From: an uncultured Burkholderiales bacterium
GTDB lineage: Bacteria > Pseudomonadota > Gammaproteobacteria > Burkholderiales > Burkholderiaceae_C
Length of the DNA stretch: 64,000 bases
Direction of reading: 5' to 3'
Assembly (NCBI GenBank): GCA_945952065.1
Contig: CAMFGY010000022.1
Span: 1 to 64,000 of the forward strand
Below the pieces are notes generated by a model, which worked only from the letters and a program-made list of their open reading frames with translations, ran no database searches and was not told the DNA's origin. The position numbers and the translations under genes were made by a program. Below, one piece after another: positions 51,855 to 52,024 of the stretch (position 1 is its first letter; each line of letters begins with the position of its first letter).

Positions 51855-51870
51855 TGCAAACGCCGTGCCA
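51855..51870 (-). promoter_or_regulatory. Sigma-54 promoter (-24/-12) TGGCACGGCGTTTGCA
   Basis: Matches TGGCACG-N4-TTGCA on the minus strand, upstream of the ABC operon. Confidence 0.85.
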
Positions 51871-51934
51871 GCCTCTAGCTGCGGAAGAATCCTTTGTGAA
51901 TCAAGGGTTTGGGGCGGGTCTCATGCGCCAGGCG

Positions 51935-52024
51935 AGTGTCCGCGGACACTGGCGGACAAGAAGCGGACAAGAGACGGACAAGAGACGGACAAGAGACGGA
52001 CAAAGCGCGGACAACGCGCGGACG
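51935..52024. promoter_or_regulatory. Palindrome AGTGTCCGCGGACACT plus phased GGACA/GGACG half-site array; candidate enhancer for the NtrC-type regulator
   Basis: GGACR starts at 51944, 51954, 51965, 51976, 51987, 51998, 52009, 52020 (10-11 bp period). Confidence 0.7.

What the first reader, a model, noticed from the sequence alone, without database searches (positions are those of the whole stretch)
51855..52024. Helically phased GGACA array plus palindrome upstream of a perfect sigma-54 promoter
Seen directly: AGTGTCCGCGGACACT (16-bp palindrome, 51935-51950) runs into eight GGACA/GGACG half-sites at 51944, 51954, 51965, 51976, 51987, 51998, 52009 and 52020, all in one orientation. About 65-150 bp away is TGGCACGGCGTTTGCA (minus strand), matching the sigma-54 -24/-12 consensus and facing the efflux operon. 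That operon encodes its own GAFTGA-containing NtrC-type regulator. Inference: the array is an enhancer where the regulator nucleates on the palindrome and spreads along one DNA face. Standard NtrC-family enhancers usually have one to three dyads, so a one-sided tract of half-sites would be unusual.
Basis: partly seen in the sequence, partly recalled or inferred. Interest (0 to 1): 0.85.

Follow-up and report, generated by a model that had tools for sequence, protein, structure and literature searches.

The report
Tandem half-site sigma-54 enhancer array
In front of a seven-gene export-type operon sits a conserved genetic switch: a short mirror-image site plus a row of up to seven same-facing copies of half of it, which the operon's own regulator most likely binds; the same half-site in another layout controls a sister operon in the same cell, so layout rather than sequence may keep the two switches apart.

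Summary
The dyad TGTCCGCGGACA lies upstream of a sigma-54 promoter in 59 of 76 orthologous operons from beta- and gammaproteobacteria, including every genus member that carries the operon. Extra TGTCCG half-sites lie on its promoter-distal side (86 found, 1.6 expected, in 46 loci of the family; 39 of 39 in one direction within the genus), while flanks and spacers diverge. Motif presence matches presence of the operon's NtrC-type regulator. An IHF-like site sits at a fixed place between dyad and promoter. Dyad-to-promoter distance is quantised (45, 55-56, 64-69, 76-80 bp), so helical phasing is conserved there. It is not conserved inside the array, where steps run 9-13 bp between species; the even 11-bp ladder is particular to this genome. 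A paralogous operon in the same genome and nine relatives uses the same half-site as spaced dyads (TGTCCG-N4-CGGACA) without an array. Closest precedents are CbrB (non-palindromic subsites, monomer binding, IHF) and Nla28 (tandem direct half-sites). Verdict: a new variant of a known kind of sigma-54 enhancer, well supported by comparison, with no binding data.

The parts
51855..51870 (-). sigma-54 promoter TGGCACGGCGTTTGCA (-24/-12)
   Evidence: Read directly; full match to TGGCAYG-N4-TTGCW; counterpart in nearly all motif-bearing orthologues; single rpoN gene in the genome
51899..51911 (+). Putative IHF site AATCAAGGGTTTG (WATCAANNNNTTR, no mismatch), 41 bp upstream of the -24 box
   Evidence: Perfect in 28 of 59 dyad loci against 0.13 expected from shuffles; fixed at -41 or -30/-31 from the -24 box; six HU/IHF-family genes in the genome
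51937..51948 (.). Core dyad TGTCCGCGGACA (abutting half-sites, no spacer); 16-bp palindrome 51935-51950
   Evidence: Unique in own genome; perfect in 59 of 76 orthologous loci, 46 of 48 in the family; dyad to -24 box 78 bp
51953..52013 (-). Six tandem same-direction TGTCCG half-sites (minus strand) starting, in + coordinates, at 51953, 51964, 51975, 51986, 51997, 52008, on the promoter-distal side of the dyad
   Evidence: half-sites enriched 86 versus 1.6 expected upstream of the dyad in 46 family loci
52019..52024 (-). Outermost variant half-site CGTCCG
   Evidence: Variant CGTCCG is itself enriched upstream of the dyad (30 versus 0.9 expected)
50517..51788 (-). First gene of the operon: periplasmic adaptor (MIRDTSAQDQ...)
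   Evidence: HlyD/RND_mfp matches
49750..50475 (-). ABC ATPase (MacB/LolD/DarD-like, below equivalog cut-offs)
48358..49734 (-). TolC-family outer membrane channel
   Evidence: TIGR01844 above its cut-off
47051..48448 (-). MacB/FtsX-type permease 1
45803..47023 (-). MacB/FtsX-type permease 2
44423..45784 (-). NtrC-type response regulator (receiver, AAA+ with GAFTGA, Fis-type HTH LGLSRQALYRRMERYGL), proposed binder of the array
   Evidence: AF2 model shows only three helices in the DNA-binding domain after a disordered linker
42984..44417 (-). Sensor histidine kinase (PAS, HATPase_c)

Best explanation
The region is the enhancer and promoter of an autoregulated tripartite ABC export operon. The operon's kinase phosphorylates its NtrC-type regulator, which anchors on the abutting dyad TGTCCGCGGACA and on the tandem TGTCCG half-sites behind it. 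Each half-site probably takes one short, flexibly tethered HTH domain, so several regulator subunits are concentrated and assemble the AAA+ hexamer. IHF bends the DNA between dyad and promoter so that the hexamer meets sigma-54 RNA polymerase, which then transcribes the operon, regulator included (positive feedback). Dyad, IHF site and promoter keep a fixed face of the helix; the number and spacing of extra half-sites vary between species and probably tune sensitivity. Shown by comparison: the parts, their conservation and spacing, and their co-occurrence with the regulator. Inferred: binding by this regulator, one HTH per half-site, IHF action, tuning, feedback.
For: Dyad plus same-direction half-sites plus sigma-54 promoter in every genus member carrying the operon, with diverged flanks and spacers. 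59 of 76 loci have the exact dyad. Half-sites upstream of the dyad: 86 same-direction and 14 opposite in 46 family loci against 1.6 expected from coding DNA; 39:0 in the genus. Motif and regulator co-occur: 70 motif-positive loci, all with a regulator orthologue in the genome; 6 motif-less loci, four in genomes with none, two in genomes whose only one sits beside the other, motif-bearing copy. Recognition helix SRQALYRR nearly invariant. Dyad-to-promoter distances 45/55-56/64-69/76-80 (deviation from whole turns p about 0.005 for five in-family shifts, 0.0002 for 13 genera). IHF consensus perfect in 28 of 59, 0.13 expected. DNA-binding domain modelled with three helices behind a disordered linker.
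Against: No binding, footprint or expression data. The even 11-bp ladder of this length is found only here; orthologues use 9-13 bp, so a rigid one-face filament is unlikely. Some orthologues have no exact extra same-direction half-site within 110 bp (5 of 46), so a long array is not strictly required. The AF2 model is a monomer from a shallow alignment and does not exclude dimers. The statistics treat related genomes as partly independent.
Confidence: 0.82

Rival explanations
1. Conventional dimer enhancer: only the dyad (and perhaps the nearest half-site) matters, and the rest of the array is a slippage by-product with no function.
For: Tandem units in this genome have near-identical spacers (TCTCT three times), a mark of recent slippage; half-site number varies from 0 to 6 in the family.
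Against: In other genomes the half-sites stay intact while spacers have diverged; same-direction half-sites are over 50-fold enriched across 18 genera; runs of four or more occur in several genera.
Confidence: 0.2
2. Rigid filament on one DNA face: regulator nucleates at the dyad and spreads along a helically phased ladder.
For: The window's own spacing is 10 then 11 x6; the first extra half-site is 9-13 bp from the dyad in 27 of 41 family loci that have one.
Against: Steps of 13, 13, 13 in several genus members turn by about 85 degrees each; no unique period across loci.
Confidence: 0.15
3. The array is bound by a different protein, for example a repressor or nucleoid protein, and only the dyad belongs to the regulator.
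For: Binding was not tested here.
Against: Array units have the same six bases as each half of the dyad; motif and regulator co-occur throughout; the paralogous regulator with a near-identical recognition helix also has TGTCCG half-sites at its promoter.
Confidence: 0.05

Closest known systems
CbrB (Pseudomonas putida) enhancers at crcZ, crcY and PP2810 (PMC6296734)
   Same: sigma-54 activator of the NtrC family; several non-palindromic 6-bp subsites (TGTTAC) of variable spacing with cumulative effect; IHF between enhancer and promoter; monomer binding proposed
   Different: CbrB has three subsites in mixed orientation (F1, R1, R2) 20-25 bp apart and no dyad; here an abutting dyad is fixed and up to seven same-direction half-sites follow at about one turn
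Nla28 (Myxococcus xanthus) tandem half-sites (PMC9765219)
   Same: sigma-54 activator using tandem 8-bp repeats, often 3-5 per promoter; two of three half-sites shown essential in one promoter
   Different: Nla28's half-site CT[C/G]CG[C/G]AG is itself nearly palindromic, so direction means little; no anchored dyad and no quantised promoter distance reported in the passages read
NorR three-site norVW enhancer (PMC2941729)
   Same: Several binding sites act as scaffold for assembly of the AAA+ hexamer
   Different: NorR uses three separate sites bound by dimers, not a dyad plus tandem half-sites
Classical NtrC/NifA-type enhancer with IHF bend
   Same: Dyad about 100 bp upstream, IHF site between, -24/-12 promoter
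   Different: One to three dyads, no one-directional half-site tract (general knowledge)
Paralogous operon in the same genome (C27:38609) and nine relatives
   Same: Same half-site TGTCCG, near-identical recognition helix (SRAALYRR versus SRQALYRR), sigma-54 promoter, export genes
   Different: One or two dyads with 4-bp spacer (TGTCCG-N4-CGGACA), no tandem array; regulator divergent from the operon

Membership tests
sigma-54 promoter | TGGCAYR-N4-TTGCW with GG and GC 10 bp apart | tested here: met
   Every fixed position matches; conserved in orthologues
sigma-54 promoter | rpoN-dependent transcription | not testable with these tools
   One rpoN gene present; no expression data
NtrC-family enhancer-binding protein (regulator) | Receiver, AAA+ sigma-54 interaction domain with GAFTGA, Fis-type HTH | tested here: met
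   Pfam matches and GAFTGA
NtrC-family enhancer (DNA) | Conserved upstream dyad at a fixed promoter distance, co-inherited with the regulator | tested here: met
NtrC-family enhancer (DNA) | Bound by the regulator | not testable with these tools
   Only co-occurrence evidence
IHF-assisted sigma-54 enhancer | IHF consensus between dyad and promoter | tested here: met
   Perfect match at 51899-51911, conserved place; IHF binding itself untested
CbrB-type multi-subsite enhancer | Three or more non-palindromic subsites and no dyad | tested here: not met
   Non-palindromic subsites present, but a perfect dyad is fixed in 59 of 76 loci
Nla28-type tandem enhancer | Tandem direct half-sites as binding unit | tested here: inconclusive
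   Tandem same-direction half-sites present, but the half-site differs and a dyad is present
Rigid one-face helical array | Constant helical spacing across orthologues | tested here: not met
   Spacing 9-13 bp, no single period
MacAB-TolC-type tripartite ABC exporter (operon) | Adaptor, ABC ATPase, MacB/FtsX permease, TolC channel | tested here: met
   two separate permeases, unlike the fused MacB; substrate unknown

The most novel reading that the evidence does not exclude
Two paralogous NtrC-type regulators in one cell read the same half-site TGTCCG and are kept apart by layout alone: abutting dyad plus a one-directional tandem array for one, 4-bp-spaced dyads for the other. In the array system single HTH domains on tandem half-sites build the AAA+ hexamer, and half-site copy number, changed by slippage, acts as an evolutionary dial for sensitivity.
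Probability: 0.4. Interest if true: 0.8.

Novelty: new variant of a known kind. Interest (0 to 1): 0.62.

Why it matters
How many regulator subunits a sigma-54 enhancer must hold, and how paralogous regulators with similar recognition helices avoid cross-talk, are open questions. This family offers dozens of natural variants with the same regulator, promoter and IHF-like site but different numbers of extra half-sites, plus an in-genome paralogue with the same half-site in another layout, so both questions become directly testable with simple reporters.

Tried and rejected
RNA element or tRNA: no Rfam or tRNA match. Sigma-70 promoter or terminator in the region: none found. Chance or plain microsatellite: rejected by conservation across genera. 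A wider regulon in the genome: the exact dyad is unique; TGTCCG-N0-6-CGGACA occurs at five places, two of them at the paralogous operon; the other two were not examined further. A third paralogue (C3:101648, recognition helix LGLSRSAFYRR) has a sigma-54 promoter but no TGTCCG sites. Fixed period of the array: none. Literature searches for the motif gave no description of it in the held library; descriptions in subscription journals cannot be excluded.

Full report
What is there. Read on the minus strand, towards the operon, the order is: CGTCCG, then six TGTCCG units at 11-bp steps, a 10-bp step, the dyad TGTCCGCGGACA, an IHF-like site, the promoter TGGCACGGCGTTTGCA, and the ATG of the adaptor gene at 51788. 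The region lies between the stop of a YceI-like gene (52041) and the operon. The array is the best-scoring tandem repeat of the window, its dyad is unique in the 5.27 Mb genome, and paired TGTCCG units are almost confined to it.

The operon. Adaptor, ABC ATPase, TolC-type channel, two MacB/FtsX-type permeases, an NtrC-type response regulator with GAFTGA and a histidine kinase. The exporter is of the MacAB-TolC type with two separate permeases; substrate unknown. Named relatives are Paucibacter and Roseateles.

Conservation. The adaptor gene was used to find orthologous operons in the genus, the family and a sample of the phylum, and up to 10 kb were fetched for each. Of 76 loci, 59 carry the exact dyad, 46 of 48 in the family. 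In 110 bp upstream of the dyad, 46 family loci hold 86 TGTCCG in the dyad's direction and 14 in the other; coding DNA of the same loci predicts 1.6, and the variants CGTCCG (30 against 0.9) and TGTCCA (12 against 1.2) are enriched too. In the genus the count is 39 to 0. Flanking genes and spacers differ between genomes. Gammaproteobacterial orthologues have TGTCCG clusters, of mixed direction, at the same place. The window has the longest regular run (eight units), but runs of 4 to 7 occur in several other genera.

Link to the regulator. All 70 loci with at least one half-site belong to genomes with a regulator orthologue, in the fetched locus (61) or elsewhere in the genome (9). Of the six loci without half-sites, four are in genomes with no orthologue and two in genomes whose only orthologue stands beside another, motif-bearing copy. 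Five of the six are from one family, so the number of independent events is small. The recognition helix LGLSRQALYRR is nearly invariant.

Spacing. The distance from dyad to -24 box takes the values 45, 55-56, 64-69 and 76-80 bp. Five in-family departures from the common 77-78 are close to whole helical turns (p about 0.005), and so are 13 genera together (p about 0.0002). The IHF consensus is perfect in 28 of 59 loci (0.13 expected) and stands at -41, or one turn closer at -30/-31, from the -24 box. So dyad, IHF-like site and promoter keep their faces of the helix. The array does not: steps are 9-13 bp, in some genomes 13 repeatedly, and no period stands out. This corrects the title of the finding.

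Structure. An AlphaFold2 model of the regulator (mean pLDDT 77, pTM 0.55) has a DNA-binding domain of three helices only (412-421, 426-433, 437-446) after a low-confidence stretch around 391-411. From general knowledge, NtrC and Fis have an additional N-terminal helix used for dimer formation; its absence here fits single HTH domains on single half-sites, but this was not tested.

The paralogue. In the same genome a second export operon (C27:38609) has a divergent regulator with helix LGLSRAALYRR and, before its sigma-54 promoter, two TGTCCG-N4-CGGACA dyads. Ten of ten genomes with this paralogue show one or two such N4 dyads and no array. Among array-type operons of the family only one locus has an N4 dyad. 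The two systems thus share a half-site and differ in layout, which suggests insulation by arrangement; this is a hypothesis.

Comparison with known systems. CbrB binds three non-palindromic TGTTAC subsites of variable spacing, apparently as a monomer, with IHF (PMC6296734). Nla28 uses tandem 8-bp repeats, often 3 to 5 per promoter (PMC9765219). NorR needs three sites as scaffold for a higher-order oligomer (PMC2941729). The present system combines a fixed abutting dyad with a one-directional tandem tract, and I found no description of it in the searchable papers. It is filed as a new variant of a known kind.

Limits. There are no binding or expression data. Genomes are related, so p values are indicative.

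Noticed in passing
G000 C27:38447-38496 (L200, L201, L204, L205): Paralogous export operon with two TGTCCG-N4-CGGACA dyads and a sigma-54 promoter, divergent regulator and kinase; layout conserved in ten of ten genomes with this paralogue.
   Followed up: yes
G000 C3:101648 (L199): Third export paralogue with its own NtrC-type regulator (47% identical, helix LGLSRSAFYRR) and sigma-54 promoter TGGCACGCATCCTGCA, but no TGTCCG sites; repeated CGTCCC-like elements upstream.
   Followed up: partly
G000 C5:103325 and C15:15711 (L202, L203): Two more TGTCCG-N-CGGACA palindromes (spacers 6 and 1) outside the two export operons; possible further targets or chance.
   Followed up: no
Loci L134, L136, L140, L142, L145 (G422, G205, G410, G414, G087): Gammaproteobacterial copies of the export operon without adjacent regulator, TGTCCG sites or clear sigma-54 promoter, so the exporter there seems to be under other control.
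   Followed up: partly
L124, L125, L131, L157, L159 (G048, G289, G170, G749, G665): Operons whose regulator orthologue lies outside the operon, up to some 50 kb away on the same contig in G048, while the enhancer is kept.
   Followed up: partly
window 52041-52949, minus strand: YceI-like gene directly upstream of the array (Pfam score just under cut-off, 21.9 against 23.7); a similar coding end is seen upstream in some orthologues (L011, L021, L023) and replaced by other sequence in the rest.
   Followed up: no
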